64,000 nt of DNA from assembly GCA_009746045.1 (NCBI GenBank), contig RPFO01000497.1, positions 1,010,970 through 1,074,969 of the forward strand. The letters run 5' to 3'. The notes under the pieces are model-generated. The model did no database searches. It was not told where the DNA came from and saw only the letters and a list, made by a program, of their open reading frames with translations. Source of the DNA: Mesostigma viride. Its lineage: Eukaryota; Streptophyta; Mesostigmatophyceae; Mesostigmatales; Mesostigmataceae. The position numbers and the translations under genes were made by a program. Positions 21,116 to 60,256 of this stretch are shown here, piece by piece; the stretch's first letter is position 1, and each line of letters starts with the position of its first letter.

Positions 21116-21118
21116 CTC

Positions 21119-30813: not shown

Positions 30814-32055
30814 ATGGACCCCCCGGCGCAATTCCTGTGCCCCATCTCCTGTGACATAATGCGAGATCCCGTCATCTTAGTGGGATCTGGCCAAGTCTAC
30901 GAAAGGAACTTTATAGAACAGTGGTTCACTCGAGGCAATGAGACCGACCCGCTCACAAACGTGAGGGTTTCTGACAAAACCCTGGTCCCTGTTGTAGCGC
31001 TGCGCTCGCTTATTGAGCAATGGATGGAGCAGCAGAGAGATACGCAGCGTCTTGGAATAGCAGGCATGGAAGCCGGCTCTATTCCGCTCATAAGCCAGGA
31101 CACATTGGTCTTGGGCGAGCTCCTTCATAACGGGGCCATGGCTGCCGTATCGGTGGCGGTCCTAAAACCAGCGGGGCAGGAAGTTGTGGTGAAAATGTTC
31201 CATGCCAGAGGGCTGACAGATGATGAGTCCGCCAGGTTCCGCAAGGAGGTGCAAATACTGCACCAGGCATCGGTCTTTTGCCACAACGTGTGCCGCCTCA
31301 TCGGGGTGGCCAGCATTAACGGCCAGCCCTGCATGATCATGCCGCGTTACAGCGCCTCGCTGCAACAGGTGCTGCTTCAGCATCAGCAGACTGGCAGCAA
31401 TGGAGGTGCAGCTACCTCACAAGGCTTGCCATTGGACCGCATTCTGAGCATCAGTCAGGATGTTGCCTTGGCCATTGCGGACCTGCATGAACGGGGCATC
31501 ATGGTGCTGGATTTGAAACCTGACAATATCTTGCTGGACAAGTATGGGCGGGCGGTGGTGGCCGATTTTGGGATCTCAGCCCTCCGAACCAGCACAATGT
31601 CGCGCTACAATCCCACATTCGGCGCTCAGGGCACGGCCAACTACATGGCGCCGGAGCAGTGGATTCCCGAAGAGTTTGGGGGCATAACCACCGCAGCGGA
31701 TGCATGGGGTTTCGGGTGCGTTTTGGTGGAAATGGCATCCGCCACTGCCCCCTGGGCTGGCTTGAACAATTTCCAAATCATGACACGTGTCACTCCCCCA
31801 CGCATGATGTCTCCAGCCATCCCAGACAGCCTGCCCAGCTCGTTGCGGGACCTTCTACGCCGCTGCTTTGCGTACCAGCCAACCGACAGGCCCGCCTTTG
31901 CAGAGATCCTGGTGATGTTGCGGCAAGGGGCGGTGAGCCAGATAGCTCCGCAGCATACCGCTCCCCAGCCACAACCCCCAGGGTCCCCAGCCACGGCTCC
32001 ACTCCCTGCCAGCCCTCAACAACCTGGGCAAGCAACCACTGCATCATCCCCACTG
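30814..32055 (+). CDS. Gene 2 exon 1: U-box and protein kinase domains
   Basis: The start ATG at 30814 is immediately preceded by an in-frame TGA, so translation cannot begin further upstream in this exon. Residues about 5-73 form a U-box: FLCPI at 7-11, a conserved DP at 18-19 and YERNFIEQWF at 29-38. Residues about 98-370 form a kinase domain: candidate ATP-binding lysine K127 in VVVK, E145 in the C-helix, catalytic segment VLDLKPDN with D233 and N238, DFG at 251-253, APE at 279-281, DAWGFG at 296-301 and R359 near the end. The usual HRD is VLD and the glycine loop is poorly conserved. Residues 375-414 are a Pro/Ala/Gln-rich linker. The donor is CTG|GTGAGG at 32056. If this intron is retained, the frame runs 13 more codons to TAA (32095-32097), ending C-F-C-C-V. 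Confidence 0.88.
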
Positions 32056-35000
32056 GTGAGGAGGATGGGTGATGCCACGTGTTTCTGCTGCGTCTAAGTC
32101 TCCCCCTGCATGGCTTGGCTGTTTGTGAGAGAATGTGCAAAGAACCTGCGCTGCCAAAACGAGAGACCTGTGCTGAAGCGGAAAGTGGTTGGCATAAACC
32201 TTGTGGGCGTTGTGTGGTTGGTATCCCCTGGTATTTGCTGTGTTCGATCTTACACGGGTTGGCTAATACAGTAGAGGCATGCTAGACTTGGGGAGCTTAC
32301 ATATTACACATGACTGAAACGTGCACGTTTATACACTACTATGGTTGAGCTTGTTGGGTATTGTTGCCCTCTCACTTGCAAGGAAAGCAGCGTGGCATTA
32401 TTGGCTTTCCGGCAGTTATTTGCTCCTGCATCAATTGCAATTCATCTTGATGCTGCGACATGGCCAGGCATTTTCTGCATTGTCCTATTCCCTTTTGCCC
32501 TTCCATCGGCTTGCATATGCTCATGGTGCACCACGTTTTGTGCTTGTACCCCTTTCCTGACAGGACGCTCGCCCGTCAGTGCAGTCAGCTGGCAGAGAAG
32601 GCCCAGTGGATGATTCTTGGATCGCCATGCTGCTGAGCGACATGAACGTCACAGACAATGTATGCTATTTTTGGAGCACTTGCCTTACATGTTCCTTTTC
32701 TCCCTGCTTGGACTGGAAGGGAATGTCACTCCGCATGGTGCAGTCCAGAAGGCCTCTCCCAGAGGTGCAGGTATAGAAGGTGCCATGTCACTGTAAAAAG
32801 CACGACATGTGTTTCCAAAGGGCTCAGACCTGGATACATGTTGAGTGCGTCTGGGGGGGATGAAACAGCGGCTAGCCCAGAACACCAGGTTCAGAACTGA
32901 AGTTTAGCTTTGCAAATATGCTTGAGTGATTTTTATTAATTTTCTTGTTCTCATCATGGGCATGTGGACAACACAACCTGGATACAGCCCCAGTATTTGC
33001 TTGCTTTTGGTTATATGGACCCATTTTCGGAACTCTGGACCAATAAAACAAATTTCTGCATGGTGCAGAAGTGCCGGTTATTTGAGCCTGTACTCGGTAT
33101 GCACTTGCCTGGCACTCCTTACCTTATAATAACCCGGTATATGCCTGACCACCGTAAATGCCTTGAGTTTGACTTTGGTTCAGACTTTGTGGGCGTAGCA
33201 GGCACGTTCAGGGAGTACTGGGATGAGGAAACTGATTTTTCTTCACCAGCTGTCGATATCAGGCGGTGAGCCATGAGAAATCTGCCTTGATCTTGCAGCC
33301 TGTGGAAGTTCAGGTTTGGGTAGCCTATGTAATTCTGGTGCTGGACAACCTGCCAGTGTGTGCTGCCAAGGGTTTGAACGCGGGCATGACACAATCCACT
33401 CAGCTCTGCAGCCATGCTGCTGGTCCCTCCTTTTGGTCATCTATAGTCCAGCACTGTTTTGTCTCAATGTTCTGTGGTGGCTTTGATGGCCTCATCTTTA
33501 GTACGTTGGCTACACTTCCTGAAATTGGTTGACCATGGGTGCGGTATTTCCCTCACAACTCCTCTACGTTGACTACCTCTACTTTATCGGATGAGGATGG
33601 GGGATGCCACGTGTTTCTGCTGCGTCTAACTCTCCCCCTGCATGGCTTGGCTGTTTATGAGAGAATGTGCAAAGAACCTGTGCTGCCAAAACAAGAGACC
33701 TGTGCTGAAGCGGAAAGTGGTTGGCATAAACCTTGTGGGCGTTGTGTGGTTGGTATCCCCTGCTATTTGCTGTGTTCGATCGTACACGGGTTGGCTAATA
33801 CAGTAGAGGCATGCTAGACTTGGGGAGCTTACATATTACACATGACTGAAACGTGCATGGTTATACACTACTATGGTTGAGCTTGTTGGGTATTGTTGCC
33901 CTCTCACTTGCAAGGAAAGCAGCGTGGCCTTATTGGCTTTCCGGCAGTTATTTGCTCCTGCATCAATTGCAATTCATCTTGATGCTGCGACATGGCCAGG
34001 CATTTTCTGCATTGTCCTATTCCCTTTTTGCCCTTCCATCGGCTTGCATATGCTCATGGTGCACCACGTTTTGTGCTTGTACCCCTTTCCTGACAGGACG
34101 CTCGCCCGTCAGTGCAGTCAGCTGGCAGAGAAGGCCCAGTGGATGATTCTTGGATCGCGATGCTGCTGAGCGACATGAACGTCACAGACAATGTATGCTA
34201 TTTTTGGAGCACTTGCCTTACATGTTCCTTTTCTCCCTGCTTGGACTGGAAGGGAATGTCACTCCGCATGGTGCAGTCCAGAAGGCCTCTCCCAGAGATG
34301 CAGGTATAGAAGGTGCCATGTCACTGTAAAAAGCACGACATGTGTTTCCAAAGGGCACAGACCTGCATACATTGTGAGTGCGTCTGGGGGGGATGAAACA
34401 GCGGCTAGCCCAGAACACCAGGTGCAGAGCTGAAGTTCAGCTTTGCAAATATGCATGAGTGATTTTTATTGATTTTCTTGTTCTCATCATGGGCATGTGG
34501 ACAACACAACCTGGATACAGCCCCAGTATTTGCTTGCTTTTGGTTGTATGGACCCATTTTCGGAACTCTGGACCAATAAAACAAATTTCTGCATGGTGCA
34601 GAAGTGCCGGTTATTTGAGCTTGTACTCGGTATGCACTTGCCTGGCACTCCTTGACCTTGTGCAGTAAAAACCCGGTATATGTCTGACCACCATAAATGC
34701 CTTGAGTTTGACTTTGGTTCAGACTTTGTGGGCGTAGCAGGCACGTTCAGGGAGAACTGGGATGAGGAAAACTGATTTTTCTCCACCAGCTGTCGATATC
34801 AGGCAGTGAGCCATGAGAAATCTGCCTGGATCTTGCAGCCTGTGGAAGTTCAGGTTTGGGTAGTATATGTAAGTGTGGTCCTGAAGAGCCCCGGTCTATC
34901 TTGCAAGTGTTTGAAGACGCGCATGACACAATCCACTCACCTCTGCAGCCATGCTGCTGGTCCCTCCTTTTGGTCATCTATAGTCCAGCACTGTTTTGTC

Positions 35001-38000
35001 CCAATGTTCTGTGGTGGCTTTGATGGCCTCATCTTCAGTACGTTGGCTATACTTCCTGAAATTGGTTTACCATAGATGCTGTATTGCCCTCACAACTGCT
35101 CTCCGTTGACTACCTCTACTTTATCGGATGCTGTGTCCAGGTTGGGCAGACCCCGTTGCATCATGCAGCAAAGGTGGGGCATCTCAACACGGTCCAACGC
35201 CTGGTTGCGAATGGTGCCGACATGGAAGCTAAGGACCAGGTCAGTTTCGGGTTCGTCCTAGCGGCCAAAGTTGATGTAATCATGTTCAGCGTGTCATCTA
35301 CAGTGTTTTCAGAACAGTGGTATGCTCACTCATGACGCTTGATATTAGTGACCCGGCCTTTGTGACTACTAAATAGCCCCTAATTTTAATAAGCGAACCC
35401 CAGGGGTCCATGCCCAATCATTTCACACAACAAGACGCACAAGCTGCCGATTGTGACCTCGTTTATTCCAAACAGTTTTCAAGAAAAGAAGGCAGTGTTT
35501 GCCAACAGCAAGATTCTCACATTGTAGATCATTCTGGCTTTGTGGTTAACCCAAAACAGATCGATTCCGAGAAGTTGGGTGGAGGCTACTGGGATCAACC
35601 CTGTGCTATTACTGTATGATCAGATTGGCGGTGCTTTAATTGAACTACAAAGCGCTGGAAAGGCAGGCACAACTTGTGGGAGCTGATGCCGGTCAATCGC
35701 TTTGACTGAGTTGTGATCAGGGGCCGTGATGTTCATGATGTGGGCATGACCAGTTTTGATCCTGCAGGCACATCCCTCCGCTAGGTGGTTTACCACATTC
35801 CAACTAGTCCTGATAAGGAGATTCGTGGCTGCTGCGTGCAGGATGATTGCACACCGCTCTGCATTGCGGCAAAGAATGGCCACCTAGACATCGTGAAGCT
35901 CCTGGTCGCGAGCGGTGCGAACAAGGAGGCGAAGAACAAGGTCAGCTTTCCCTTGACCCTAATTGCCGCAAGTGCATGTGCTTCCACGCACGGTTTATGT
36001 ATATCTGCAACGCAATCATGTTGTAGGATGGGCAAAGGGCTTCAGGACAGATGTTGTCAGGCTTGCTATCAACCTCGCGAGCGCTTTTGCGATCCCAGCA
36101 CTGGGCATGCTGCCTATGGGAAATTGTGCTGTTGATCAGCCGGGCACCCATGGGATGCCTGTTGCCCATGAGGTGGATGGCTCTGTCGGGCTCGAATCGC
36201 GGCTACAGGAATCTGGATCACGGACGACGAATGTTACTTTTACTACCGTACTCAGGGCGAGGAACCCGAGAGATAGCATGCATGGACCTGGTGCCGAATA
36301 GTTTCTCAAATACCTCTTCGCCACCTGTGAGATCGTGGCCCCCGCACCCCACCCGGCCACCCCCTTCTGTTGTGACCATGGGTAAGGAACTGCCAAATCC
36401 ACTGCGGCGAGGTGTGCGGTGCGACGGTTCCATTTACTGAACCTTTCAACACCGGGCCTTAGGTGATCTGAATAGGTTTCTGGCCCGCATGTTCTGGCCT
36501 TCACCGTCCTGACTGCCAGGGTGTCCTGAGGGCCATTTGTTTGCTGGGAGGCATATGTAGCGCGTTCAGGCTGTCCTTGTTATGCTGTTAGCAGATGCTG
36601 CCTGGGATCTTTGCTGATGTTCTTCATGGACCGACTCTCTCGCACAGAGCATGCAGCTCATCTCCAGGCACGTCAGTAAATCCCCGTCCTCGGTGGTTGT
36701 ACTGTTGCCCCTTGTTTTTTGCAGCGATGGTAGTTAAACTGGGGGCTACTGGGATGTAGTGCATGACGGTACTTTGGGTTACACCAAGAAGCGCTGGAAA
36801 GGCAGGCACCAGTTTTTGGGAGGCGCTTACAGGTCAATCACTCAAGAGTTTGGCTGTGGCCACGATCAGGGGCTGTGATGTCCATGGGTGTGGGCATGGC
36901 GCGTAGGCCTGTTTCGGTTCCTGCACTCACGTCCCCCCGCTTTGCGGTTTCCCACGTCCCATCTGGTGCTCACGGGGACATGCATGGCTGCTGCGTGCAG
37001 GATGATGCCACACCGCTGCATTTGGCGGCAAGGAATGGCCACCTGGAGGTCGTGAAGCACCTGATCACGAGCGGTGCAGACAAGGAGGCCAAGGACAAGG
37101 TCAGCTTTTCGTTTTCCATCAGTTACAATTGAAGTGCTTCCATGCACGGTTTTGGTGTATCTGCAACGCAACCATGTTGTAGGATGGCTAGGGCTCCACC
37201 ACCGTTGGTGTCAGGCTTGCTGCCAACTTCACTGGGCACGTTTGCGATCCCAGCATCGGTCGCACTGTCTCTGGGGAGTTGTGCTGTTGATAGCTGTGCA
37301 CCCGTGGGATGCCTGTTGCCCATGAGGTGGACGCCAATAGGCCAGGAATCGTGGCTACAGGAAATCAGGATTATGGACAACGGATCTTACCTTTACTACC
37401 ATGCTCAGGTCGACGAGTTCGAGAGATAGCATGCATGGACCTGGTCGTGCTGAATAATTTTTCAAACTCTAGCGCACCGTGTGAGATCATGTTCCGTGCC
37501 CCCCAACGCCATTTCTCTTGTGGCAATGGGTAAGCAAGGGTCGAATCTATTGATGTGAGGTGTGCGGTAAATTGACTCGATGTACTGAAATTTTTTACCA
37601 CCATGCCTGTTGGTGATCTGAATAAAGTTTATGGCTCATGTTGCCTGGCCTTAACCATCCTGACCACCTGGCTGTCCTGAAGGCCATTTGTTTGTTGGGA
37701 GCCCTGTGTAGTACGTTCAGCCTGTCCGTGCCATGCTGCCAGCAGCAGCTGCGTGGGATGTTTGCTGCTGTTCTTAATGGCCCGACTCGCTTGTGCACAC
37801 GGACCACGCGGCTCATCCCCAGCCACATCAATAACTCAGTGGTTGTACTGATGCCCTTGTTTTATCCAGCGATGATAGTTAGGGTGGAGGCTACATAAAC
37901 TTTCTAATGCGCTGTACTTCAGTTAGGCTGCGAATCGCGGCACAAATTTTGGGAGCCGCTTGCAGGTCAGGCCCCTTGCTGAAGAGTTCGGCTGTGGCCA

Positions 38001-41000
38001 TGATCAGGGGCTGTGATGTCCATGGGTGTGGGCATGGCGCGTAGGCCTGTTTCGGTTCCTGCACTCACGTCCCCCCGCTTTGCAGTTTCCCACGTCCCAT
38101 CTGGTCCTCACGGGGACATGCGTGGCTGCTGCGTGCAGAATGATGCCACACCGCTGCATATTGCGGCAGAGGGTGGCCACCTGGAGGTTGTGAAGCACCT
38201 GGTTGCGAGCGGTGCAGACAAGGAGGCCAAGGACAAGGTCAGCTTTACCTTTACCCTGATGGCCGCAAGTGGATGTGCTTCCGCGCACGGTTTATGTATA
38301 TCTGCAGGGCAATCATGTTGTAGGATGGGCAAAGGGCCTCATGACAGATGGTGTCAGGCTTGCTATCAACCTCGCGGGCACCCATGGGATGCCTGTTGCC
38401 CATGAGGTGGATGGCTCTGCTGGGCTCGCATCGCGGCTACAGGATCATGGACGACCAATCTCACTTTTACTACCATGCTCAGGGCGACGAATCCGTGACA
38501 TAGCACACGTGTGACCTTGTTGTGCTGGAGATTCGTTTTTTCCCTCTTGCGCGGCTAGTGAGATCAAGTTCCTCACCCCCCACCCGTTCCTACGCTTTCT
38601 TTATTGACAATGGGTAAGGAACTGCCGAATCCGCTGACCTGCAGTGCATGGTGAGATGGTCCCAGTTACTGAACCTTTTCACCACCAGGCCTTCGGTGAT
38701 CCGAATATGTTTCACACCCACTTTGTCTGGACTTCCCCATCCTGACTGCCAGGCTGTCCTGAGGGCCATTTGTTTGCTGGGAGTTATGTGCAGTGTATGT
38801 TTGATTCCTTGCTGGTAGCTTCTGGGCTTTCTTTTTTTTCTGTGTTCCGCGGAATCTCAGATTTGAGGAGCTAGCGATTTCATGTTTGTTGCTTTCTGAC
38901 GACAGTATGTAAGACATTCAGCCTTACCTTGTTATGTTGTTAGCAGATGCTGCCTGGGACCTTTGCTGATGTTCTTAATGGCCCAACTCACGCGGGCCAC
39001 GCGGCTGCCCAGCCACGTCAGTAAATCTCTGTCCTCGGTGGTTGTACTGATGCCTTGTTTTCTGCAGTGATGGTAGTTAGTGGGGGGGCTACGGAGATGT
39101 AGTGCATGGCGGTACTTTTGGTTACACCACGAAGTGCTGGGAAGGCAGGCACCATTTTTTGGGAGGCGCATACAGGTCAATCACTCAAGAGTTTGGCTGT
39201 GGCCATGATCAGGGCTGTGATGTCCATGGGTGGGGGCATGACGCGAAGGCATGTTCGGTTCCTTCAGACACATCCCCCTCGCTTCTTTTGTTCCATCTGG
39301 TGCTCACGGGGACATGCGTGGCTGCTGTATGCAGGATGATGCCACACCGCTGCATGTTGCGGTGATGGAGGGCCACCTGGACATCGTGAAGCACCTGGTC
39401 GCAAGCGGTGCGAACAAGGAGGCCAAGGCCAAGGTCAGCTTCTTCTCTACCGTGATGGTCCCAAGCGGATTTACTTCCACGCATGTTTTTGGTATATCTG
39501 TGAAACAATGATGTTGTAGGATGGGCAAGGGCTCCACCATAATAGGTTGTCATGCTTGCTACCACCTTCACTTTGCGCTGTTGCGATTCCATTAGAAGCA
39601 CCTGGTGGTGGGTGGTGCAGACAAGGAGGCGAAGGAAGAGGTCAGCTTTTCAATTTCCATGAGCCACAATTGATGTGCTTCCATGCACGGTTTTGGTGTA
39701 TGTGCGACGCAACCATATTGTAGGATGGGCAAGGGCTCCACCACCGTTGGTGTCAGGCTTGCTACGAACTTCACTGGGCACGTTTGCGATCCCAGCATTG
39801 GTCGCACTGATTGTGGGGAGTTGGGCTGTTGATCAGCCTGGCACCCATGAGGTGGACGCCAATAGGCCAGGAATCGTGGCTACAGGAAATCGGGATTATG
39901 GACGACCGATCTTACTTTTACTACCGTGCTCAGGTCGACGAGTTTGAGAGATAGCATGCATGGACCTGGTTGTGCTGAATAATGTTTCAAAGACCTTTAG
40001 CGCACCCTTGGAGATCATGTTCCGCGCCCCCCAGTGCCATTTCTCTTGTGGCAATGGGTAAGCAAGGGTTGAGTATATTGACCTGAGGTGCGCGGTAAAT
40101 TGACTCGATGTACTGAAATTTTTTACCACCATGCCTGTTGGTGATCTGAATAGGTTTATGGCTCATGTTGCCTGGCCTTTATAACCATCCTGACCACCTG
40201 GCTGTCCTGATGGCCATTTGTTTGCTGGGAGCCGTGTTTAGTACGTTCAGCCTGTCCGTGCCATGCTGCCAGCAGCAGCTGCGTGGGATGTTTGCTGTTG
40301 TTCTTAATGGCCCGACTCGCTTGTGCACACGGACCACGCGGCTCATCCCCAGCCACATCAATAACTGAGTGGTTGTACTGATGCCCTTGCTTTATCCAGC
40401 GATGATAGTTAGGGTGGAGGCTACATAAATTTTCTAATTTGCGGTACTTCAGTTATGCTGCGAATCGCGGCACCATTTTGGAGCCGCTTGCAGGTCAGTC
40501 GCACAAGAGTTTGGCAGTGGCCATGATCAGGGGCTGTGATGTCCATGGGTGTGGGCATGACGCGTCGGCCTGTTCCGTATCCTGCAAGGCACGCCCCCCG
40601 CTTTGTGGTTTCCCACGTTCCATCTTGTCCTCATGGGGACATGCGTGGCTGCTGTGTGCAGATTGATAGCACCCCGATGCATTTTGCGGCATGTCTTGGC
40701 CACCTGGAGGCCGTGAAGCACCTGGTCGCGAGCGGTGCGAACAAGGAGGCCAAGGACAATGTCAGCTTTACCTTTACTCTCATGGCCGCATGTGGATGTG
40801 CTTCCGCGCGCGGTTTATGTATATCTGCAACGCAATCATGTTGTAGGATGGGCAAAGGGCTTCACGACAGATGGTGTCAGGCTTGCTATCAACCTCGCGG
40901 GCGCTGTTGCGATCCCGGCACAGGGCACACTGCCTGTGGGACTTGTGCTGTTGACAAGCCGGGCACTCATGGGATGTGTGCTGCCCATGAGGCGGATGTG

Positions 41001-50000: not shown

Positions 50001-53000
50001 AGGCCATTTGTTTGCTGGGAGCCGTATGCAGTACGTTCAGCCTGTCCGTGCCATGCTGCCAGCAGCAGCTGCAAGGGATGTTTGCGGCTGTTCTTAATGG
50101 CCCGACACGCTTGAGCACACGGACCACGCGGTCCATCCCCAGCCACATCAATAACTCAGTGGTTGTACTGATGCCCTTGTGTTACCCAGCGATGATAGTT
50201 AGGGTGGAGGCTACATAAACTCTTATGCGCTAACTTTCTAATGCGCTGTACTTCAGTTAGGCTGCGAAACGCGGCACAAATTTTGGGAGCCGCTTGCAGG
50301 TCAGGCCCCTTGCTGAAGAGTTTGGCTGTGACCATGATCAGGGTCTGTGATGTCCATGGGTGTGGGCATGGCGCGTAGGCCTATTTCGGTCCCTGCACTC
50401 ACGTCCCTCCGCTTTGCGGTTTCCCACGTCCCATCTGGTGCTCACGGGGACATGCGTGGCTACTGCGTGCAGGGTGATTTGACCCCGCTGCATATTGCGG
50501 CACGGGAGGGCCACCTGGAGGTTGTGGAGCACCTGGTCGCGAGCGGTGCCGACAAGGAGGCCAAGGACAAGGTCAGCTTTACCTTTACCCTGATGGCCGC
50601 AAGTGGATGTGCTTCCACGCACGGTTTATGAATATCTGCAGGGCAATCATGTTGTAGGATGGGCAAAGGGCTGTACGACAGATGGTGTCAGGCTTGCTAT
50701 CAACCTTGCGGGCACCCATGGGATGCCTGTTTCCTATAATTTTTTTAATACCTCTAGCGCACCGTGTGAGATCATGTTCCGCCCCCCCCGCATAGCCCCA
50801 CCCTTGTGTTGTGGAAATTGGCAAGGTATGGCCAAATCCATTCACCTGAGGTGCGCGATGAGATGGCTTTATTTACTGAACCTTTTCACCACTAAGCTCG
50901 TTGGTGATCTGAGTAGGCTTCTCACCTGCGTTGTCTGGACATGGTTGTGCTGAATAATGTTTCAAAGACCTCTAGCGCACCGTGTGAGATCATGTTCCGT
51001 GCCCCCCAACGCCATTTCTCTTGTGGCAATGGGTAAGCAAGGGTCGAATCTATTGATGTGAGGTGCACGGTGAATTGACTCCATTTACTGAATTTTTTTA
51101 CCACCAGGCCTGTTGGTGATCTGAATAAAGTTTATGGCTCATGTTGCCTGGCCTTCACCATCCTGATACCTGGCTGTCCTGATGGCCATTTGTTTGCTGG
51201 GAGCCGTATGTCGCACGTTCAACCTGTCCGTGCCATGCTGGCAGCAGCAGCTGCGTGGGATGTTTGCTGCTGTTCTTAATGGCCGGACTCACGTGTGCAC
51301 ACGGACCACGCGGCTCATCCCCAGCCACATCAATAACTCAGTGGTTGTACTGATGCTCTTGTTTTGTCCAGGGATGATAGTTAGGGTGGAGGCTACATAA
51401 ACTTTCTAATTTGCAGTACTTCAGTTAGGCTGCGAATCGAGGCACAAATTTTGGGAGCCGCTTGCAGGTCAGGCCCCTTGCTGAAGAGTTTGGCTGTGGC
51501 CTTGATCAGGGTCTGTGATGTCCATGGGTGGGGGCATGGCGCGTAGGCCTGTTTCGGTTCCTGCACTCACGTCCCCCCGCTTTGCGGTTTCCCACGTCCC
51601 ATCTGGTCCTCACGGGGACATGCGTGGCTGCTGCGTGCAGAATGATTTGACCCCGCTGCATATTGCGGCACAGGAGGGCCACCTGGAGGTTTTGGAGCAC
51701 CTGGTCGCGAGCGGTGCCGACAAGGAGGCCAAGGCCAAGGTCAGCTTTACCTTTACCCTGATGGCCGCAAGTGGATGTCCTTCCGCGCACGGTTTATGAA
51801 TATCTGCAGGGCAATCATGTTGTAGGATGGGCAAAGGGCTGTACGACAGATGGTGTCAGGCTTGCTATCAACCTTGCCGGCACCCATGGGATGCCTGTTT
51901 CCTATAATTTTTTTAATACCTCTAGCGCACCCTGTGAGATCATGTTCCGTGCCTCCCAACGCCATTTCTCTTGTGGCAATGGGCAAGCAAGGGTCAAATG
52001 TATTGACCTGAGGTGCGCGGTAAATTGACTCCAATAACTGAATTTTTTTACCACCACGCTTGTTGGTGATCTGATTAGGCTTATGGCTCATGTTGCCTAG
52101 CCTTAACCATCCTGACCACCTGGCTGTCCTGATGGTCATTTGTTTGTTTGGAGCCCTATGTAGTACGTTCAGCCTGTCCGTGCCATGCTGCCAGCAGCAG
52201 CTGCGTGGGATGTTTGCTGCTGTCCTTGATGGCCCGACTCGCTTGGGCACACGGACCACGCGGCTTATCCCCAGCCACATCAATAACTCAGTGGTTGTAC
52301 TGATGCTCTTGTTTTGTCCAGGGATGATAGTTAGGGTGGAGGCTACATAAACTTTCTAATTTTGCGGTACTGCAGTTAGGCCGTGAATCATGGTGCAAGT
52401 TTTGGGAGCCGCTTGCAGGTCAGGCCCCTTGCTGAAGAGTTTGGCTGTGGCCATGATCAGGGGCTGTGATGTCCACGGGTGGGGGCATGGCGCGTAGGCC
52501 TGTTTCGGTTCCTGCACTCGCGTCCCCCCGCTTTGCGTTTTCCCATGCCCCATCTGGTCCTCACGGGGACATGCGTGGCTGCTGCGTGCAGGATGACTGG
52601 ACCCCGCTGCATTTTGCGGCACTGGAGGGCCACCTGGAGGTCGTGAAGCACCTGGTTGCGAGTGGTGCGAACAAGGAGGCCAAGGACAAGGTCAGCTTTA
52701 CCTTCGCCCTGATGGCCACAAGTGGATGTGCTTCCGTGCACAGTCTTTGTATATCTGCAGGGCAATCATGTTGTAGGATGGGCAAAGGGCCTCACGACAG
52801 ATGGTGTCAGGCTTGCTATCAACCTCGCGGGCACCCATGGGATGCCAATTTCCCATGAGGTGGATGGCTCTGCTGGGCTCACATCGCGGCTACAGGACTC
52901 TGGATCACGGACGACCAATCTCACTTTCACTCCCGTGCTCAGGGCGACGAATCCGTGAGATAGCACGCGTGTGACCTTGTTGTGGTGGAGATTCTTCCAT

Positions 53001-56000
53001 TTTCCTCTCGCGCACCCTGTGAGATCATGTTCCTCGCCCCCCGCCCGTTCCTACGCTTTCTATATTGACAATGGGTAAGGAACTGCGGAATCCGTTGACC
53101 TGCGGTGCATGGTGAGATGGTCCCAGTTACTGAACCTTTTCACCACCAGGCCTTCGGTGATCCGAATATGTTTCACACCCACGTTGTCTGGACTTCCCCA
53201 TCCTGACTGCCAGGCTGTCATGAGGGCCATTTGTTTACGTGGAGGTATATGCAGTGCATTGAGCCTGTCTTTGTTCCGCTGTGATCAGCCGCTGCCTGGG
53301 AACTTTGCTGATGTTGTTAATGGCCCAACTCCCTCACACGGGCCACGAGGCTTCCTAACCACGTCAGTAAATCCCCGTCCTGGGTGGTTGTACTGATGCC
53401 CTTGTTTTCTGCTGCGATGGTAGTTAGTGTGGGGGCTACGGGGATGAAGTGCATGACGGTACTTTGGGTTACACCACGAAGCGCTGGAAAGGCAGGCACC
53501 AGATTTTGAAAGGCGCTTACAGGTCAATCGCTCAAGAGTTTGGCTATGGCCATGATCAGGGGCCGTGAAGTCCATGGGTGTGGGCATGACGCGTCGGCCT
53601 GTTCCGTATCCTGCAAGGCACGCCCCCCGCTTTGTGGTTTCCCACGTTCCATCTGGTCCTCACAGGGACATACGTGGCTGCTGCCTGCAGAATGACTGGA
53701 CCCCGCTGCATATTGCGGCAGGGAAGGGCCACCTGGAGGTCGTTGAGCACCTGGTCGCGAGCGGTGCGATCAAGGAGGCAAAGGGCCTGGTGAGTTTTGC
53801 TTGCATCGATGGCCACAAGTGGATGTGCCTCGGCGCACGGTTTTTGTATAACTGCAACGCAACCATGTTGTAGGAGGGGCAAGGGCTCCACCACCGATGT
53901 TGTCAGGCTGGCTAGCAACTTCACTGGGCACGTTTGCGATCCCAGGACTGGGCGCACTGTCTCTGGGGAGTTGTGCTGTTGATTGCTGTGCACCCATGGG
54001 ATGCCTGCTGCCCATGAGGTGGACGCCAATAGGCCAGGAATCGTGGCTACAAGAAATCAGGATTATGGACGACCGATCTTACTTTGACTACCGTGCTCAG
54101 GTCGACGAGTTCGAGAGATAGCATGCATGGACCTGGTTGTGCTGAATAATTTTTCGAATACCTCTAGCACACCCTGTGAGATCATGTTCCGCGCCCCCCA
54201 GTGCCATTTCTCTGGTGGCCATGGGTAAGCAAATCTATTGACCTGAGGTGCATGGTAAATTGACTCCATTAACTGAATTTTTTTACCACCATGCTTGTTG
54301 GTGATCTCAATAGGTTTATGGCTCATGTTGCCTGGCCTTAACCATCCTGACCACCTTGCTGTCCTGATGGTCATTTGTTTGCCGGGAGCCGTATGTAGTG
54401 CATTCAGCCTGTCCGTGCCATGCTGCCAGCAGCAGCTGCGTGGGATGTTTGCTGCTGTTCTTAATGGCCCGACTCGCTTGTGCACACGGACCACGCGGCT
54501 CATCCCCAGCCACATCAATAACTCAGTGGTTGTACTGATGCTCTTGTTTTGTCCAGGGATGATAGTTAGGGTGGAGGCTACATAAACTTTCTAATTTTGC
54601 GGTACTGCAGTTAGGCTGCGAACCGCGGCACAAATTTTGGGAGCCGCTTGCAGGTCAGGCCCCTTGCTGAAGAGTTTGGCTGTGGCCATGATCAGGGGCT
54701 GTGATGTCCATGGGTGGGGGCATGGCGCGTAGGCCTGTTTCGGTTCCTGCACTCACGTCCCCCCGCTTTGCGGTTTCCCATGCCCCATCTGGTCTTCACG
54801 GGGACATGCGTGGCTGCTGCGTGCAGAATGATTTGACCCCGCTGCATATTGCGGCACTGGAGGGCCACCTGGAGGTTGTGGAGCACCTGGTTGCGAGCGG
54901 TGCAAACAAGGAGGCGAAGAGCAAGGTCAGCTGATGGCCACAAGTGGATGTGCTTCCGCGCACGGTTTATGAATATCTGCAGGGCAATCATGTTGTAGGT
55001 TGGGCAAAGGGCTGTACGACAGATGGTGTCAGGCTTGCTATCAACCTCGTGGGCACCCATGGGATGCCTGTTTCCCATGAGGTGGATGGCTCTGCCTGGC
55101 TCGCATCGCGGCTACAGGACTCTGGATCACGGACGACCAATCTCTCTTTCACTACCATGCTCAGGGCGACGAATCCGTGAGATAGCACGCGTGTGACCTT
55201 GTTGTGGTGGAGATTATTTCATTTCCCTCTTGCGCACCCTGTGAGATCATGTTCCTCGCCCCCCGCCCGTTCCTACGCTTTCTATATTGACAATTGGTAA
55301 GGAACTGCCGAATCCGTTGACCTGCAGTGCATGGTGAGATGGTCCCAGTTACTGAACCTTTTCCCCACCAGGCCTTCGGTGATCAGAATATGTTTCACAC
55401 CCACGTTGTCTGGACTTCCCTGTCCGGACGGCCAGGCTGTCCTGAGGGCCATTTGCTTTCTTGGAGGCATATGCACTGCATTGAGCCTGTCCTTGTTCCG
55501 CTGTGATCAGCCGCTGCCTGGGAACTTTGCTGATGTTGTTAATGGCCCAACTCCCTCACACGGGCAGCGCGGCTCATCCCCAGGCACCTCAGTAAATGGT
55601 TGTACTGATGGCCTTGTTTTTTGCAGCGATGGTAGTTAGTGTGGGGGCTACGGGGATGATGTGCATGACGGTACTTTGGGTTACACTACGAAGCGCTGGA
55701 AAGGCAGGTGCTAGTTTTTGGGTGCTTCTTGCGGGTCAATCACTCAAGAGTTTGGCTGTGGCCATGATCAGGGGCCGTGACGTCCATGGGTGGGGGCCTG
55801 GCGCGAAGGCATGTTGGGTATCCTGCAAGGCACGCTTCCCGCTTTGTGGTTTCTTATGTCCCATCTGGTCCTCACGGGGACATGCGTGGCTGCTGCGTGC
55901 AGGATGATTTGACCCCGCTGCATAGGGCGGCAAGGAAGGGCCACCTGGAGGTCGTGAAGCTCCTGGTCGCGAGCGGTGCGAACAAGGAGGCCAAGGACGA

Positions 56001-58963
56001 GGTCAGCTTTTCGTTTTCCATGAGATACAATTGATGTGCTTCCACGCACGGTTTTGGTGTATCTGCCAGGCAACCATGTTGTAGGAGGTGCAAGGGCTCC
56101 ACCACCGATGTTGTCAGGCTGGCTAGCAACTTCACTGGGCACGTTTGCGATCCCAGGACTGGGCGCACTGTCTCTGGGGAGTTGTGCTGTTGATTGCTGT
56201 GCACCCATGGGATGCCTGCTGCCCATGAGGTGGACGCCAATAGGCCAGGAATCGTGGCTACAGGAAATCAGGATTATGGACCACCGATCTTACTTTGACT
56301 ACCGTGCTCAGGTCGACGAGTTCGAGAGATAGCATGCATGGACCTGGTTGTGCTGGATAATGTTTCAAAGACCTCTAGCGCACCGTTTGAGATCATGTTC
56401 CGTGCCCCCCAGTGCCATTTCTCTTGTAGCCATGGGTAAGCAAGGGTCAAATCTATTGACCTGAGGTGGGCGGTAAATTGACTCCATTAACTGAATTTTT
56501 TTACCACCACGCTTGTTGGTGATCTGAATAGGTTTATGGCTCATGTTGCCTGGCCTTAACCATCCTGACCACCTGGCTGTCCTGATGGTCATTTGTTTGC
56601 TGGGAGCCGTATGTAGTGCGTTCAGCCTGTCCGTGCCATGCTGCCAGCAGCAGCTGCATGGGATGTTTGCCGTTGTTCTTCATGGCCCGACTCGCTTGTG
56701 CACACGGACCACGCGGCTCATCCCCGGCCACATCAATAACTCAGTGGTTGTACTGATGCCCTTGTTTTATCCAGTGATCATAGTTAGGGTGGAAGGTACA
56801 TAAACTTTCTAATTTGCGGTACTGCAGTTAGGCTGCGAATCGCGGCACAAATTTTGGGAGCCGCTTGCAGGTCAGGCCCCTTGCTGAAGAGTTTGGCTGT
56901 GGCCTTGATCAGGGTCTGTGATGTCCATGGGTGGGGGCATGGCGCGCAGGCCTGTTTCGGTTCCTGCCCTCACGTCCCCCCGCTTTGTGGTTTCTTATGT
57001 CCCATCTGGTCCTCACGGGGACATGCGTGGCTGCTGCGTGCAGGATGACTGGACCCCGCTGCATATTGCGGCACTGGAGGGCCACCTGGAGGTTGTGGAG
57101 CACCTGGTCGTGAGTGGTGCCAACAAGGAGGCGAAGGACCAGGTCAGCTTTACCTTTACCCTGATGGCCGCAAGTGGATGTGCTTCCGCTCGCGGTTTAT
57201 GTATATCGGCAGGGCAATCATGTTGTAGGATGGGCAAAGGGCTCCATGACCGATGTTTTCAGGCTTGCTACCAACTTCACTGGGAGCTGTTTCAATCTCA
57301 GCTTTGGGAACATTGCTTGTGGGAGTTGTGCTGTTGACAAGCCGGGAACCCATGGGATGCCTGTTTCCCATGAGGTGGTTGGCTCTGCTGGGCTCGCATC
57401 GCGGCTACAGGACTCTGGATCACGGACGACCAATCTCACTTTCACTCCCATGCTCAGGGCGACGAATCCGTGAGATAGCACGCGTGTGACCTTGTTGTGC
57501 TGGAGATTATTCCATTTTCCTCTTCCGCACCCTGTGAGATCATGTTCCGCGCCCCCCGCCCGTTCCTACGCTTTCTATATGGACAATTGGTAAGGAATTG
57601 CAGAATCCGTTGACCTGCGGTGCATGGTGAGATGGTCCCAGTTACTGAACCGTTTCACCACCAGGCCTCAAGCTGTTCACCTATGGGATGACGATGTTCA
57701 CCTATGGAATGCTTGTTTTGTTGCCCATGAGGAGGACGGCTACATGGCAAAGATAGGCGAGTGCAACAACCCATGGGAAAGTTTCTCTCTCTGCGCTGCA
57801 TAGTATAATGAGCACGATTCGTGCCCAGCCATGCATATGCTGTAGTCAAAGTTGTGCGTGTCTAAACTTTAGAGCGTTTTGAGAGTATGAACTTCCAAGT
57901 GCCACTTTCTGTTTTTATGGTAATAGTTCTTGTTGCATACACAGATACAACCATGCACATCCTGATCTGATGGGATGGCTCAGATAGCTGCACGTCTAGA
58001 CATCCTCGTTCGGCAGCTGACTTGGTGCCAGTGAGCCGTGAGCCCTGCTCCGCATAGCAGCATTCAAGTTGCTTTCTTCATGGAACTTGGTTTTTCTTCT
58101 GGATTGGTCCGTTCTATTTCTCTTGTATCATCCATGAAGGCATTGGTAGCGCGCCGGTGGCGGCAGGCAGGCACTTTTTCAGGGGGGATCTCTCAAGGGC
58201 TCCTTGTACTACTATCTTTCATAGGTATCCATTCTACAAGTTTGATACGTCGTTTCAACAGCAGCATTCATGTATTCTTTTATGTAACATATGTGTAACG
58301 CATCTCATAAGTGACTGAGCGTGGAAATGCATCAGTAGCTTGCCATGACCATGACCTCATATGTGCCTCACATCTAAGTGATATAATGATTGAAGTCATG
58401 GCACGCCACTTGGTAGTTGTTTGAGCATTATAGGGAAACAGCAATGTGGCTATGGTCAGTAGCAAGTAGCAGAAGGCAAGCGTGCCTGGCATTCAATGTC
58501 ATGTTACTCAGACATTGAATGCCTCAGATCTAGCTCATGCACGTGACTTTGTGCTGCTAGTAGAGTTCGTGAAATGACCCTACAACAAAGGGCTGGGATT
58601 CCTTATTTATTTCCGATGTGCATTGTAAAGGACCCCTCAGTGCTAGGATTCCTTACTTCATGCTGATGTGGATTATAAATGGGCCCTTAAAGCTCGTATT
58701 CCATAGTACTGATGTGCACTATACATTACCCTATAAGGCTCTGATTCCTTAGTACTGAGGTGCACTATACATTACCCCTTGAGGCTCAGATTCCTTGGTA
58801 CTGATGTGCCCCTTTCATTCGCATGCTACATGGAGGCCGTTGCTGAGGATGGAAATCGTGTTCGCAACTTTGCATGCCGTGTTTTGCATGGTCGAGACAG
58901 GGTGGATTGACCGCACTGGATTTTGCATCAACACCGGAGTTGCGCGATTTTCTGAAGGAGTAG
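30814..58963 (+). CDS. Gene 2: complete U-box / protein kinase / ankyrin-array gene (spliced)
   Basis: Proposed structure: exon 1 30814-32055 (U-box and kinase), linker exons 32564-32659 and 34097-34192, ankyrin exons B0-B4 and B6-B20 (20 x 99 nt), terminal exon 58901-58963. All junctions are phase 0 with GT-AG borders, giving 414 + 32 + 32 + 660 + 20 = 1,158 residues. The half exon B5 (39596-39640) would add 15 if spliced. A U-box binds E2 ubiquitin-conjugating enzymes, the kinase domain keeps its key catalytic residues, and the ankyrin solenoid would bind a target. The product therefore looks like a cytoplasmic recognition protein coupled to phosphorylation and ubiquitin transfer (inference). 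No signal peptide or membrane segment is seen. Exon choice in real transcripts is unknown, and the uniform symmetric exons would allow many isoforms. Confidence 0.78.
32066..33593 (+). repeat. 1.53-kb tandem duplication, copy 1 (linker exon unit)
   Basis: The sequence from GATGGGTGATGCCACG to TTATCGGATG is repeated directly at 33594-35130. The offset is 1,532 bp at the left end and 1,537 bp at the right, and most differences are single bases. Copy 1 includes the 3' end of the U-box/kinase frame, the intron and one 96-nt linker exon. Confidence 0.9.
32564..32659 (+). CDS. Gene 2 linker exon 1
   Basis: A 96-nt phase-0 exon after TTTCCTGACAG and before donor GTATGC. It encodes 32 residues beginning DARPSVQSAG and ending LLSDMNVTDN, with no recognised domain. 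It is kept intact in the duplicate at 34097-34192, with one silent change (GCC to GCG), which supports coding use. Confidence 0.65.
33594..35130 (+). repeat. 1.53-kb tandem duplication, copy 2 (linker exon unit)
   Basis: This is the second copy of the unit at 32066-33593. It still carries the short relic GATGCCACGTGTTTCTGCTG from the end of the exon 1 frame, which shows that the duplication began inside that frame. It ends at TTATCGGATG, 10 nt before ankyrin exon B0. Confidence 0.9.
34097..34192 (+). CDS. Gene 2 linker exon 2 (duplicate)
   Basis: A 96-nt phase-0 exon that is a tandem copy of 32564-32659 with the same acceptor and donor and an identical protein sequence. Using both copies, either one or neither keeps the reading frame. 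Confidence 0.6.
35141..35239 (+). CDS. Gene 2 ankyrin exon B0 (first, most diverged repeat)
   Basis: A 99-nt phase-0 exon after GTGTCCAG, starting V-G-Q-T-P-L-H, with H8, K11-V12 and an N-T-V-Q-R-L helix; ends K-D-Q. The donor is GTCAGT. It is the most diverged repeat in codons and flanks, and its intron start is only distantly related to the array introns. It is plausibly the N-terminal cap and the ancestral exon from which the array grew. Confidence 0.82.
35842..35940 (+). CDS. Gene 2 ankyrin exon B1
   Basis: A 99-nt phase-0 repeat exon with C3, C7 in place of the TPLH histidine, I8, K11-N12, L20; ends K-N-K. Acceptor GCGTGCAG, donor GTCAGC. Confidence 0.82.
37001..37099 (+). CDS. Gene 2 ankyrin exon B2
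   Basis: A 99-nt phase-0 repeat exon with A3, L8, R11-N12, an I-T-S-G-A-D turn, and a K-D-K end. The intron start is the TTTTCGTTTTCC type seen in A1 and A17. Confidence 0.83.
38139..38237 (+). CDS. Gene 2 ankyrin exon B3
   Basis: A 99-nt phase-0 repeat exon starting N-D-A-T-P, with I8 and E11-G12; ends K-D-K. The acceptor is GCGTGCAG followed by AATGAT. Confidence 0.83.
38801..38910. other. ~110-bp insertion in the intron after B3
   Basis: Relative to sister introns, about 110 bp of unrelated sequence, including a T-rich tract, interrupts the block that normally reads GGCATATGCAGTGCATTCAG. Both junctions carry TATGT (38796-38800 and 38906-38910), a possible 5-bp target duplication. No terminal repeats are visible. 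Confidence 0.45.
39335..39433 (+). CDS. Gene 2 ankyrin exon B4
   Basis: A 99-nt phase-0 repeat exon with A3, V8, V10, M11-E12 and a K-A-K end. M11 is unique in the arrays. The acceptor is GTATGCAG. Confidence 0.82.
39596..39640 (+). pseudogene. Half ankyrin exon B5 (5' half deleted)
   Basis: Only the last 45 nt of an ankyrin exon remain, encoding K-H-L-V-V-G-G-A-D-K-E-A-K-E-E before a normal GTCAGC donor. A deletion fused intron sequence to the middle of the exon and removed the usual acceptor. The deletion left ATTAG directly before the remaining codons, in phase 0 and after a T-rich stretch, so a shortened exon could still be spliced in frame. It may equally be a dead remnant. Confidence 0.7.
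40662..40760 (+). CDS. Gene 2 ankyrin exon B6
   Basis: A 99-nt phase-0 repeat exon starting I-D-S-T-P, with F8, C11-L12 and A17; ends K-D-N. The last codon is AAT, so the base before the GTCAGC donor is T rather than the usual G, which weakens this splice site. Confidence 0.78.
41826..41924 (+). CDS. Gene 2 ankyrin exon B7
   Basis: A 99-nt phase-0 repeat exon with A3, I8, V10, E11-E12 and a K-T-K end. V10 (AV instead of AA) is shared with B4, B9 and B10. Confidence 0.82.
42532..42630 (+). CDS. Gene 2 ankyrin exon B8
   Basis: A 99-nt phase-0 repeat exon with L3, T8, G11-N12 and a K-S-K end. It lies 706 bp after B7; the intervening intron is shortened. Confidence 0.82.
43245..43343 (+). CDS. 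Gene 2 ankyrin exon B9
   Basis: A 99-nt phase-0 repeat exon with W3, I8, V10, G11-E12 and a K-G-R end. It uses a GTGAGT donor and the TTTGCTTGC intron start. Confidence 0.82.
44406..44504 (+). CDS. Gene 2 ankyrin exon B10
   Basis: A 99-nt phase-0 repeat exon with A3, I8, V10, G11-E12 and a K-N-K end. The following intron holds the piggyBac-like insertion. Confidence 0.82.
45056..46400. mobile_element. Non-autonomous piggyBac-like element
   Basis: A 1,345-bp insertion in the intron between B10 and B11. It is flanked by TTAA on both sides (45052-45055 and 46401-46404), whereas sister introns have a single TTAA in CCTTAACCATCC. The ends are an 11-bp inverted repeat: CCCATAGTCCG at 45056-45066 and its complement at 46390-46400. 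A TTAA target and TIRs beginning CCC are hallmarks of the piggyBac superfamily. No transposase frame was found, so it would need an element elsewhere to move. Confidence 0.88.
46363..46388. repeat. Subterminal hairpin of the piggyBac-like element
   Basis: AAACTACCCGA and TCGGGTAGTTT form a perfect 11-bp stem around a GAGG loop, immediately inside the right terminal repeat. No matching hairpin lies at the left end. It may be a transposase-binding or folding feature. Confidence 0.75.
46889..46987 (+). CDS. Gene 2 ankyrin exon B11
   Basis: A 99-nt phase-0 repeat exon starting H-D-A-I-P, with I8, Q11-E12 and a K-T-K end. It is the only repeat in which the TPLH threonine is replaced (I4). The acceptor is GCGTTCAG. 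Confidence 0.8.
47986..48084 (+). CDS. Gene 2 ankyrin exon B12
   Basis: A 99-nt phase-0 repeat exon with W3, F8, L11-E12 and a K-D-K end. The donor is GTTAGC, unique in the arrays. The protein sequence is identical to B16. Confidence 0.82.
49089..49187 (+). CDS. Gene 2 ankyrin exon B13
   Basis: A 99-nt phase-0 repeat exon starting N-D-A-T-P, with F8, W11-K12 and E19; ends K-A-P before a GTGAGT donor. Confidence 0.82.
50473..50571 (+). CDS. Gene 2 ankyrin exon B14
   Basis: A 99-nt phase-0 repeat exon starting G-D-L-T-P, with I8, R11-E12 and E19; ends K-D-K. The unit that follows is shortened and its downstream part is shared with the B15 unit. Confidence 0.82.
51641..51739 (+). CDS. Gene 2 ankyrin exon B15
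   Basis: A 99-nt phase-0 repeat exon starting N-D-L-T-P, with I8, Q11-E12 and E-V-L-E in the second helix; ends K-A-K. Confidence 0.82.
52592..52690 (+). CDS. Gene 2 ankyrin exon B16
   Basis: A 99-nt phase-0 repeat exon with W3, F8, L11-E12 and a K-D-K end. Its repeat is identical to B12, 4.6 kb upstream, although the exons between them differ. Confidence 0.83.
53691..53789 (+). CDS. Gene 2 ankyrin exon B17
   Basis: A 99-nt phase-0 repeat exon starting N-D-W-T-P, with I8, G11-K12, E19 and I27 in the turn (GAIK); ends K-G-L before a GTGAGT donor. The acceptor is GCCTGCAG. Confidence 0.82.
54827..54925 (+). CDS. Gene 2 ankyrin exon B18
   Basis: A 99-nt phase-0 repeat exon starting N-D-L-T-P, with I8, L11-E12 and E19; ends K-S-K. 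The GTCAGC donor survives, but about 15 nt directly after it, present in sister introns, are deleted. Confidence 0.82.
55903..56001 (+). CDS. Gene 2 ankyrin exon B19
   Basis: A 99-nt phase-0 repeat exon with L3, R8 (the only Arg at this normally hydrophobic site), R11-K12 and L20; ends K-D-E. Confidence 0.8.
57044..57142 (+). CDS. Gene 2 ankyrin exon B20 (last full repeat)
   Basis: A 99-nt phase-0 repeat exon with W3, I8, L11-E12, E19 and V23; ends K-D-Q. Its donor opens a 1,758-bp intron that ends at the terminal exon at 58901. Confidence 0.83.
58595..58815 (+). repeat. Degenerate ~50-bp minisatellite, 5 units
   Basis: Units start near 58595, 58646, 58696, 58742 and 58788 and share GATTCCTTAGTACTGA-like cores. 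There is one more unit than at the duplicate locus 20793-20968. Confidence 0.7.
58901..58963 (+). CDS. Gene 2 terminal exon (C-terminal ankyrin cap, stop TAG)
   Basis: After GTCGAGACAG, 63 nt in phase 0 encode GGLTALDF...LRDFLKE and stop at TAG 58961-58963. This corresponds to the gene 1 terminal exon with V8 changed to F. The acceptor, length, frame and stop are all conserved, although the flanking sequence has acquired indels. Confidence 0.82.
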   Translation, partial: GGLTALDFASTPELRDFLKE

Positions 58964-59012
58964 CTATTGCGCCCGCAGGCTGCCAGACCTGAGCAGGTGA
59001 AACTTCGCAGAC

Positions 59013-59585
59013 ATGCTGCCGGCTGCTTTGACAAAACGTGCTGCTTTGGCGAGGCATGTCTGGATGCGAGCTTATTGCAGGCACAAGGAATGGGGTGGGG
59101 TACCGGCCACGAATACGCATCCACACGGTCTAGGCAGCATGGCCCACCTTTGCTTGCTATCTGCAATGGCCCTCGTGTTTAGTGGGCGTACATTGTGTGC
59201 GTGTTTAGTGTGCTGGGTTGCCAAGGCCTGTGTCAATGCTGCCGCACGCGTGTGGTTGAGGGGACATCTAGGAGTTGGCATGCACTCTGCACACACACAA
59301 GACTGCATGGTGAAACTTGGCATGCCATCCGCAGCCCCTGGTGGGGCACAGGTTCAGTATACATCACTCTGCCTATGGTATGGTAGTCTCCAAGATGTAG
59401 AAGATGTAGATGGCTGTCTGATGGTGCCTGTGTCATTACTATACAGTCATATTTGTGAGGTCCAAGGTGGCGCGTTCTCTGTAGACTTTCTCCTTGGCCG
59501 TGGTAATGGGTCGCACAGCAGGGTAGTGTGCTTGGCTCATGAGTTTCATGGGCATTTGTGGGCAGGAAGATTGGGCAGGTTGTAA
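59013..59585 (+). other. Open frame of 190 codons in the gene 2 tail, function unknown
   Basis: This is the counterpart of 21119-21727. The shared part ends GRLGRL and contains an in-frame 6-nt duplication (GATGTAGAAGATGTAGAT). The N-terminal part is in a different frame from copy 1 because of a 1-nt indel. No domain was recognised. Confidence 0.2.
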
Positions 59586-60097: not shown

Positions 60098-60256
60098 ACA
60101 TGCCATGCCACAACTGAAAAAGTGTCTGAATAGGAAAGTCATTCTATGCTACATGCCATGCCACAACTGAAAAAGTGTCTGAATAGGAAAGTCATTCTAT
60201 GCTACATGCCATGCCACAACTGAAAAAGTGTCTGAATAGGAATGTCATTCTATGCG
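60098..60256 (+). repeat. 53-bp minisatellite, 3 units
   Basis: Three 53-bp units start at 60098, 60151 and 60204, homologous to the seven-unit array at 22226-22596. The first two units carry GGAAAGTC where copy 1 has GGAATGTC. Confidence 0.92.

What the first reader, a model, noticed from the sequence alone, without database searches (positions are those of the whole stretch)
30814..58963. One gene fusing a U-box and a kinase to a long array of one-exon-one-repeat ankyrin modules
Seen: a U-box/kinase exon, two linker exons, 20 full 99-nt ankyrin exons and a capping terminal exon, all phase 0 and open. Known: U-boxes recruit E2 enzymes, kinases phosphorylate targets, ankyrin solenoids bind proteins. 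Brown-algal LRR-ROCO and NB-ARC-TPR genes use exon-per-repeat arrays as candidate immune receptors. Inference: this is a modular recognition receptor with a combined phosphorylation and ubiquitination output, an architecture I do not know as a described system.
Basis: partly seen in the sequence, partly recalled or inferred. Interest (0 to 1): 0.92.

Follow-up and report, generated by a model that had tools for sequence, protein, structure and literature searches.

The report
Algal U-box kinase with variable ankyrins
A green alga near the root of the land-plant lineage appears to carry a gene that joins a ubiquitin-ligase and kinase head to a long row of ankyrin binding units, one per exon, whose contact surface has been pushed to vary, as expected of a modular recognition protein.

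Summary
One plus-strand gene (30814-58963) can be read as 24 phase-0 exons: U-box/kinase head, two linker exons (a 1.53-kb tandem duplication), 20 ankyrin exons of exactly 99 nt, and a cap with stop. The closest proteins are from Mesostigma viride, a streptophyte green alga. A second array of 18 exons plus cap lies upstream (209-21115). The head belongs to a Mesostigma family, at least 17 gene ids: 10 with ankyrin tails, 3 WD40, 1 USP7-like, 3 none recognised. Between repeats, variation piles up at codons 1, 3, 8, 11, 12 and 32, mostly amino-acid changing; four of the six are positions that designed ankyrins randomise (recalled); the scaffold is conserved. This resembles brown-algal LRR-ROCO genes and fungal NLR repeats. 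I read it as a cytosolic recognition E3/kinase, possibly nonself-sensing; binding, catalysis and immunity are inferred. New variant of a known kind.

The parts
30814..32055 (+). Exon 1: head, U-box (residues 4-75) and protein kinase (102-366), 414 aa
   Evidence: Pfam; donor GTGAGG read; same 3' end (SSPL) before the linker in P0001
32056..32097 (+). Read-through of the exon-1 donor to a TAA; would give a head-only product ending CFCCV
32564..32659 (+). Linker exon A, 96 nt, 32 aa
   Evidence: resembles the linker in P0001
34097..34192 (+). Linker exon B, tandem duplicate of A, identical peptide
35141..35239 (+). Ankyrin exon 1, divergent first repeat (VGQTPLHHAAK...)
   Evidence: same position and sequence type in P0001 and P0002
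35842..57142 (+). 19 further 99-nt phase-0 ankyrin exons, starts 35842, 37001, 38139, 39335, 40662, 41826, 42532, 43245, 44406, 46889, 47986, 49089, 50473, 51641, 52592, 53691, 54827, 55903, 57044
58901..58963 (+). Cap exon with stop (GGLTALDFASTPELRDFLKE)
   Evidence: 95% identical to the cap of P0001
209..19693 (+). Second array of 18 ankyrin exons, probably the tail of a neighbouring gene of the same kind whose head lies outside the window
21053..21115 (+). Cap exon of the upstream array, 100% identical in protein to the P0001 cap; stop at 21113-21115
   Evidence: stop from the open-frame boundary at 21116
39595..39636 (+). Partial ankyrin-exon match inside an intron, probably a relic; the 99-nt stretch extrapolated from it has an in-frame stop outside the matched part. 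Left out of the gene model
   Evidence: E 2.4e-7, model positions 54-95 only

Best explanation
This is one member of a Mesostigma family of modular proteins: an N-terminal U-box plus non-RD kinase head spliced, through a short phase-0 linker, to a long ankyrin solenoid built from one-exon-one-repeat units. Shown here: the anatomy, the family, and between-repeat variation concentrated at predicted contact positions. Inferred: the ankyrin solenoid binds a particular protein; binding brings it (or an associated protein) to the U-box and its E2 for ubiquitination, with the kinase phosphorylating the target or regulating the head. Repeat duplication, exchange of exons and perhaps alternative splicing renew the binding surface while the head stays fixed. 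The most likely role is recognition of fast-changing, possibly nonself, proteins inside the cell.
For: Gene model and open, constant-length exons. The same order in Mesostigma gene models, in P0001 with joins where the window's splice sites predict. The NIES-296 genome paper built its models from ab initio, homology and PASA with full-length isoform sequencing (PMC6947507 passages), but I did not verify that the Mesvir1 models are that annotation, nor which evidence backs each model. Family with interchangeable tails: at least 17 gene ids, 10 ANK, 3 WD40, 1 USP7, 3 none recognised. Selection pattern: pN 0.474 against pS 0.134 at the six most variable codons, 0.325 against 0.201 for an eight-codon set taken from designed ankyrins, scaffold pN 0.078-0.093 against pS 0.231-0.241. 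Variation at codon positions 1+2 of the six codons 0.472 (95% bootstrap 0.427-0.513) against flanking intron 0.203 (0.191-0.216), third positions of the same codons 0.235, scaffold positions 1+2 0.072. The two arrays share the ranking of variable sites (Spearman 0.74). The head is 98% identical to P0001, while the best window match of its four canonical repeats is only 26-28 of 33 residues. Kinase residues K127, E145, D233, K235, N238 and D251 are present.
Against: No transcript, protein or function data were seen. The six-codon set was chosen from the same data; with the strict seven DARPin positions (recalled) the enrichment is weaker (permutation p 0.014). Some intron triplets vary as much as the hot codons (intron maximum 1.67, 95th percentile 1.31, against exon maximum 1.64). 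Pairs of repeats with the most similar flanks also have raised pS, which points to exon exchange or gene conversion and weakens simple rate comparisons; pairs are not independent. In P0003 the variable sites agree only moderately (Spearman 0.36). The glycine loop is degenerate and 2 of 16 other Mesostigma heads aligned have lost the catalytic Asp (P0126, P0127), so kinase output is not universal. An immune role rests on analogy.
Confidence: 0.55

Rival explanations
1. A housekeeping E3 ligase/kinase in which the ankyrin array is a generic scaffold for host substrates; array length and sequence drift because long repeat arrays are recombination-prone.
For: Recent repeat pairs show signs of exchange, including raised synonymous difference; intron triplets can be as variable as hot codons.
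Against: Drift does not predict pN above pS at predicted contact sites with a conserved scaffold, nor the same ranking of sites in two arrays.
Confidence: 0.25
2. The head and the ankyrin array are separate transcription units, or the usual product is head-only.
For: The exon-1 frame runs through the donor to a stop; P0005 and P0235 are listed with U-box and kinase only.
Against: Mesostigma models P0001, P0002, P0003 and P0004 join head, linker and ankyrins, P0001 where the window's splice sites predict. I did not scan for a separate promoter of the array.
Confidence: 0.08
3. A decaying or silent copy in a tandem cluster.
For: A partial ankyrin match inside an intron and a duplicated linker show an active duplication history.
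Against: 38 of 38 exons open with splice sites; head open and kinase motifs kept.
Confidence: 0.07

Closest known systems
Brown-algal LRR-ROCO genes (Teng 2024, PMC11378527, passages; Zambounis 2012, recalled and cited therein)
   Same: One repeat per exon, constant exon length and phase, positively selected sites on the concave face (shown there for one kelp protein), alternative splicing, candidate immune receptors
   Different: There LRR exons of 72 bp in phase 2 on a ROC-COR GTPase in brown algae; here ankyrin exons of 99 nt in phase 0 on a U-box/kinase head in a streptophyte
Fungal NLRs with ANK, WD or TPR repeats (Dyrka 2014 as I recall the author; PMC4986451, passages)
   Same: Interchangeable repeat types; one ankyrin locus with five positively selected positions, mapping with one exception to the concave surface; repeat exchange
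   Different: No NACHT or NB-ARC domain here; within-array identity 74-75%, below that paper's 85% high-conservation cut
Plant U-box/kinase proteins such as PUB33 (recalled; Linum PUB33 hits)
   Same: U-box and kinase in one chain
   Different: Recalled order is kinase then U-box, without ankyrins; here U-box is N-terminal and ankyrins follow
Animal kinase-ankyrin proteins RIPK4 and ANKK1, and plant ankyrin-RING ligases XB3/XBAT (recalled)
   Same: Kinase-ankyrin or E3-ankyrin pairing
   Different: As recalled, neither joins both activities; no exon-per-repeat hypervariable array known to me
RING-like kinase ankyrin protein of Chlamydomonas sp. UWO241 (P0010)
   Same: Kinase with an ankyrin stretch and a weak RING match at the N-terminus
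   Different: RING below the curated cut-off, short ankyrin part, remote (35% identity over 58%)

Membership tests
U-box E3 ligase | U-box domain match | tested here: met
   PF04564 7e-18, residues 4-75
U-box E3 ligase | E2-dependent ubiquitination | not testable with these tools
   Needs an assay
Active protein kinase | VAIK Lys, helix-C Glu, catalytic Asp, DFG Asp | tested here: met
   K127, E145, D233, D251; glycine loop degenerate (LHNGAMAAV)
Non-RD kinase | No Arg before the catalytic Asp | tested here: met
   VLD here; 22 of 23 aligned rows lack Arg (two of them lack the Asp as well), P0014 has it. The link of non-RD kinases to immunity is recalled plus a search listing
Plant PUB-kinase class | Kinase followed by C-terminal U-box (recalled) | tested here: not met
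   U-box 4-75 precedes kinase 102-366
NLR | NB-ARC or NACHT domain | tested here: not met
   None among the 15 Pfam matches of the joined protein
Brown-algal LRR-ROCO | ROC-COR domains and 72-bp phase-2 LRR exons | tested here: not met
   No such domains; 99-nt phase-0 exons
High-internal-conservation repeats of fungal NLRs | At least 85% identity between repeats | tested here: not met
   Mean 74.1% and 75.4% in the two arrays
Diversifying repeat-recognition gene | Excess amino-acid change at contact positions | tested here: met
   simple counts, no site-model test, with the caveats given
Immune receptor | Ligand from a pathogen or symbiont and defence output | not testable with these tools
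   No ligand or phenotype data

The most novel reading that the evidence does not exclude
At the base of the streptophytes, outside the NLR and receptor-kinase lines of land plants, a U-box/non-RD-kinase head serves as a fixed output platform onto which exon-encoded recognition tails (ankyrin, WD40, even a deubiquitinase) are swapped, giving an intracellular, combinatorially spliced nonself-recognition repertoire that marks its target directly by phosphorylation and ubiquitination.
Probability: 0.25. Interest if true: 0.85.

Novelty: new variant of a known kind. Interest (0 to 1): 0.66.

Why it matters
If transcripts and binding confirm it, a unicellular relative of land plants has evolved its own repeat-exon recognition system with a direct ubiquitin/kinase output, parallel to fungal NLRs and brown-algal ROCO genes. 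A 'Candidatus Megaira' genome was recovered from Mesostigma sequencing data (PMC10132079 passages), so an intracellular target can be sought. It would also be a natural counterpart of designed ankyrin libraries and of engineered ankyrin-E3 degraders (recalled).

Tried and rejected
Brown-algal origin: rejected, the closest proteins are Mesostigma viride models. Viral origin: one scan of viral contigs with a head alignment found 17 pattern matches, none a relative. Relatives with the same three domains outside Mesostigma: none recognised in the 120 rows listed by each of three protein searches (of 263, 360 and 324 matches). These score only 8000 candidates and limit length, and some Pfam cells in the listings are cut, so absence is weak. 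U-box plus kinase without listed ankyrins does occur in unnamed environmental proteins (P0007, P0011, P0014, P0229-P0234, P0236-P0238, P0241) and in named Linum and Closterium rows (P0160, P0208, P0223, P0225, P0248). Sequence searches of solved structures gave ankyrins and designed ankyrins for the repeats (60 of 462 listed) and only kinases for the head (60 of 2369 listed), so added little. Hypermutation as the cause of the variable codons: less likely because third positions of the same codons stay near the intron level (0.235 against 0.203), not excluded. A Pfam scan of eight other open frames in the window found nothing. Mutually exclusive use of the two linker exons was considered and could not be tested. 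Allele versus paralogue for P0001: not settled.

Full report
What is there. The window is most likely nuclear DNA of Mesostigma viride: the 427-residue open frame at 30814-32094 matches Mesostigma gene models, the closest at 98% identity (P0001, Mv20885-RA.1); the taxonomy is Streptophyta, Mesostigmatophyceae. That frame contains a U-box and a protein kinase. A donor, CTG|GTGAGG, lies at 32055/32056; ignoring it, the frame ends at a TAA at 32095.

Gene model. Downstream come two linker exons of 96 nt with the same 32-residue product. They sit in a tandem duplication of about 1.53 kb, 1462 of 1522 aligned bases identical. Then a divergent first ankyrin exon at 35141, 19 typical ankyrin exons, and a cap exon at 58901-58963 with a stop. 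All 24 exons have lengths divisible by three; joined, they give 1158 residues. Pfam finds a U-box at 4-75, a kinase at 102-366 and 20 ankyrin stretches, and no NB-ARC, NACHT, ROC, COR or LRR among its 15 matches. Introns of this model range from 508 to 2384 nt.

More than chance. Of 38 ankyrin exons in the window (20 here, 18 upstream), 38 are exactly 99 nt, open, preceded by AG and followed by GT. Read in the other two frames, 34 and 36 of 38 contain stops. All 38 rows of both flanking alignments carry at least one gap by my count, which does not fully exclude end gaps. Against this, segments right next to the exons are often open in the same frame (stops in only 13 and 16 of 38 at -99 and +99), so open frame alone is modest evidence.

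Is it one gene? No RNA was available. The best substitute is other Mesostigma gene models. P0001 runs SSPL, DSRPSV...NVADN, VGQTPLHHAAK..., ankyrins, GGLTALDVASTPELRDFLKE: the order and breaks fit the splice sites predicted in the window. P0002 and P0003 show the same head-linker-ankyrin order, and P0003 ends in a similar cap. Liang et al. 2019 (PMC6947507; abstract and passages) annotated strain NIES-296 by combining ab initio, homology and PASA on full-length isoform data; I did not verify that the Mesvir1 models are that annotation. By eye, P0002 ends by reading into the intron after its second ankyrin. P0122 and P0123, named as Mv15771-RA.2 and -RA.8, are identical except for a 69-residue insertion that covers about two repeats. 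P0124 and P0125, named as Mv15768-RA.3 and -RA.1, share an identical 534-residue N-terminal part and then have different ankyrin tails and different hydrophobic C-termini. These suggest that tails vary by splicing, but model error is possible.

The family. Three searches gave 17 Mesostigma gene ids with this head, a lower bound: 10 with ankyrin tails (Mv20885, 16313, 25117, 00682, 02527, 15771, 15768, 15767, 11263, 15769), 3 with WD40 (00007, 00010, 15825), 1 with MATH and USP7-type deubiquitinase domains (21868, possibly a fused model), 3 with no recognised tail (07228, 19453, 22079; the last judged from the search listing only). Runs of neighbouring id numbers suggest tandem clusters. Of 16 other Mesostigma heads aligned with the window's, 14 keep the catalytic Asp; P0126 has Asn and P0127 Gly. 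Arg before that position is missing in 22 of 23 aligned rows. Outside Mesostigma I saw U-box plus kinase in unnamed environmental proteins and in Linum and Closterium rows, and a kinase with a weak RING match and a short ankyrin part in Chlamydomonas sp. UWO241. As far as the listed Pfam cells show, some of which are cut, no row outside Mesostigma has U-box, kinase and ankyrin together. One viral scan found no relative.

Variation between repeats. Among 37 typical exons 35 protein repeats are distinct. The largest amino-acid variety is at positions 11, 3, 32, 8, 12 and 1. Over all 666 pairs, pN and pS are 0.474 and 0.134 at those six codons and 0.078 and 0.241 elsewhere; with eight codons taken from the positions randomised in designed ankyrins, 0.325 and 0.201 against 0.093 and 0.231; flanking intron 0.212. 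The set of six is post hoc, and pairs are not independent. The eight-codon set includes position 32, which by my recollection is fixed in DARPins; it gave permutation p 0.00068 on nonsynonymous differences. The strict seven gave p 0.014 on amino-acid differences, and five of them, picked afterwards, p 0.0007. Four of the six hot codons (1, 3, 11, 12) belong to the strict seven; 8 and 32 do not. The DARPin positions are recalled; the paper passages I read say only that surface positions of 33-residue repeats are randomised (PMC8683736). Bootstrapping exons 2000 times, positions 1+2 of the six codons exceed intron and their own third positions in all replicates.

Results that weaken this. Single intron triplets reach the same variability (maximum 1.67, 95th percentile 1.31; exon maximum 1.64). 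In the four pairs with flanks at least 95% identical, intron difference is 0.040 but synonymous sites also differ (0.116-0.232), so exons look exchanged between units rather than only mutated in place. Against P0003's eight repeats the ranking of variable sites agrees only moderately (Spearman 0.36, p 0.04), and position 8 is little variable there; the two window arrays agree well (0.74), P0001 0.62 on four repeats. Between the arrays, positions 6, 16 and 17 differ most by array, as expected if units are homogenised within each array.

How it probably works. Shown: head, tail, family, variation. Inferred: the solenoid binds a protein through the variable face; the U-box with an E2 marks it, and the kinase phosphorylates it or controls the head; target change is met by duplicating and exchanging exons. 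I give 0.55 to a recognition E3/kinase and a lower weight to a strictly immune role. A 'Candidatus Megaira' genome was recovered from Mesostigma sequencing data (PMC10132079), a possible but untested source of ligands.

Compared with what is known. It works like brown-algal LRR-ROCO genes (one repeat per exon, concave-face selection, alternative splicing; PMC11378527 passages) and like fungal NLR repeats (ankyrin, WD and TPR tails with diversifying sites mostly on the concave surface; PMC4986451 passages), but belongs to neither by tested features. I found no paper describing it in searches of the held open-access library, which lacks most subscription journals. The architecture exists in gene models, so the finding is a new variant of a known kind rather than a new category.

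Noticed in passing
209-21115: A second ankyrin-exon array (18 exons) with its own cap exon, apparently the tail of a neighbouring gene of the same family.
   Followed up: partly
19904-23998 and 57719-61686: The 3' flanks of both arrays are duplicated (92.9%, 91.5% and 86.4% identity in three blocks), showing segmental duplication of the gene end.
   Followed up: partly
23993-24859: Open frame with a BIG2 C-terminal domain (Pfam 2.2e-31), part of a Sec7-type ARF-GEF gene or fragment (that link is recalled) between the two arrays.
   Followed up: no
32056-35121: A 1.53-kb tandem duplication gives two linker exons encoding the same peptide; their joint or exclusive use is unknown.
   Followed up: partly
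39595-39636: A partial ankyrin-exon match inside an intron, probably a relic.
   Followed up: no
P0121 (Mesostigma Mv21868), not in the window: The same U-box/kinase head is joined to MATH, UCH and USP7 C-terminal domains, an E3/kinase with a deubiquitinase in one model; may be a fused gene model.
   Followed up: no
P0122-P0125, not in the window: These ankyrin family members end in a strongly hydrophobic segment (Kyte-Doolittle 2.08-2.48) 5-8 residues from the C-terminus, as in tail-anchored proteins; by eye the window gene's cap has none.
   Followed up: no
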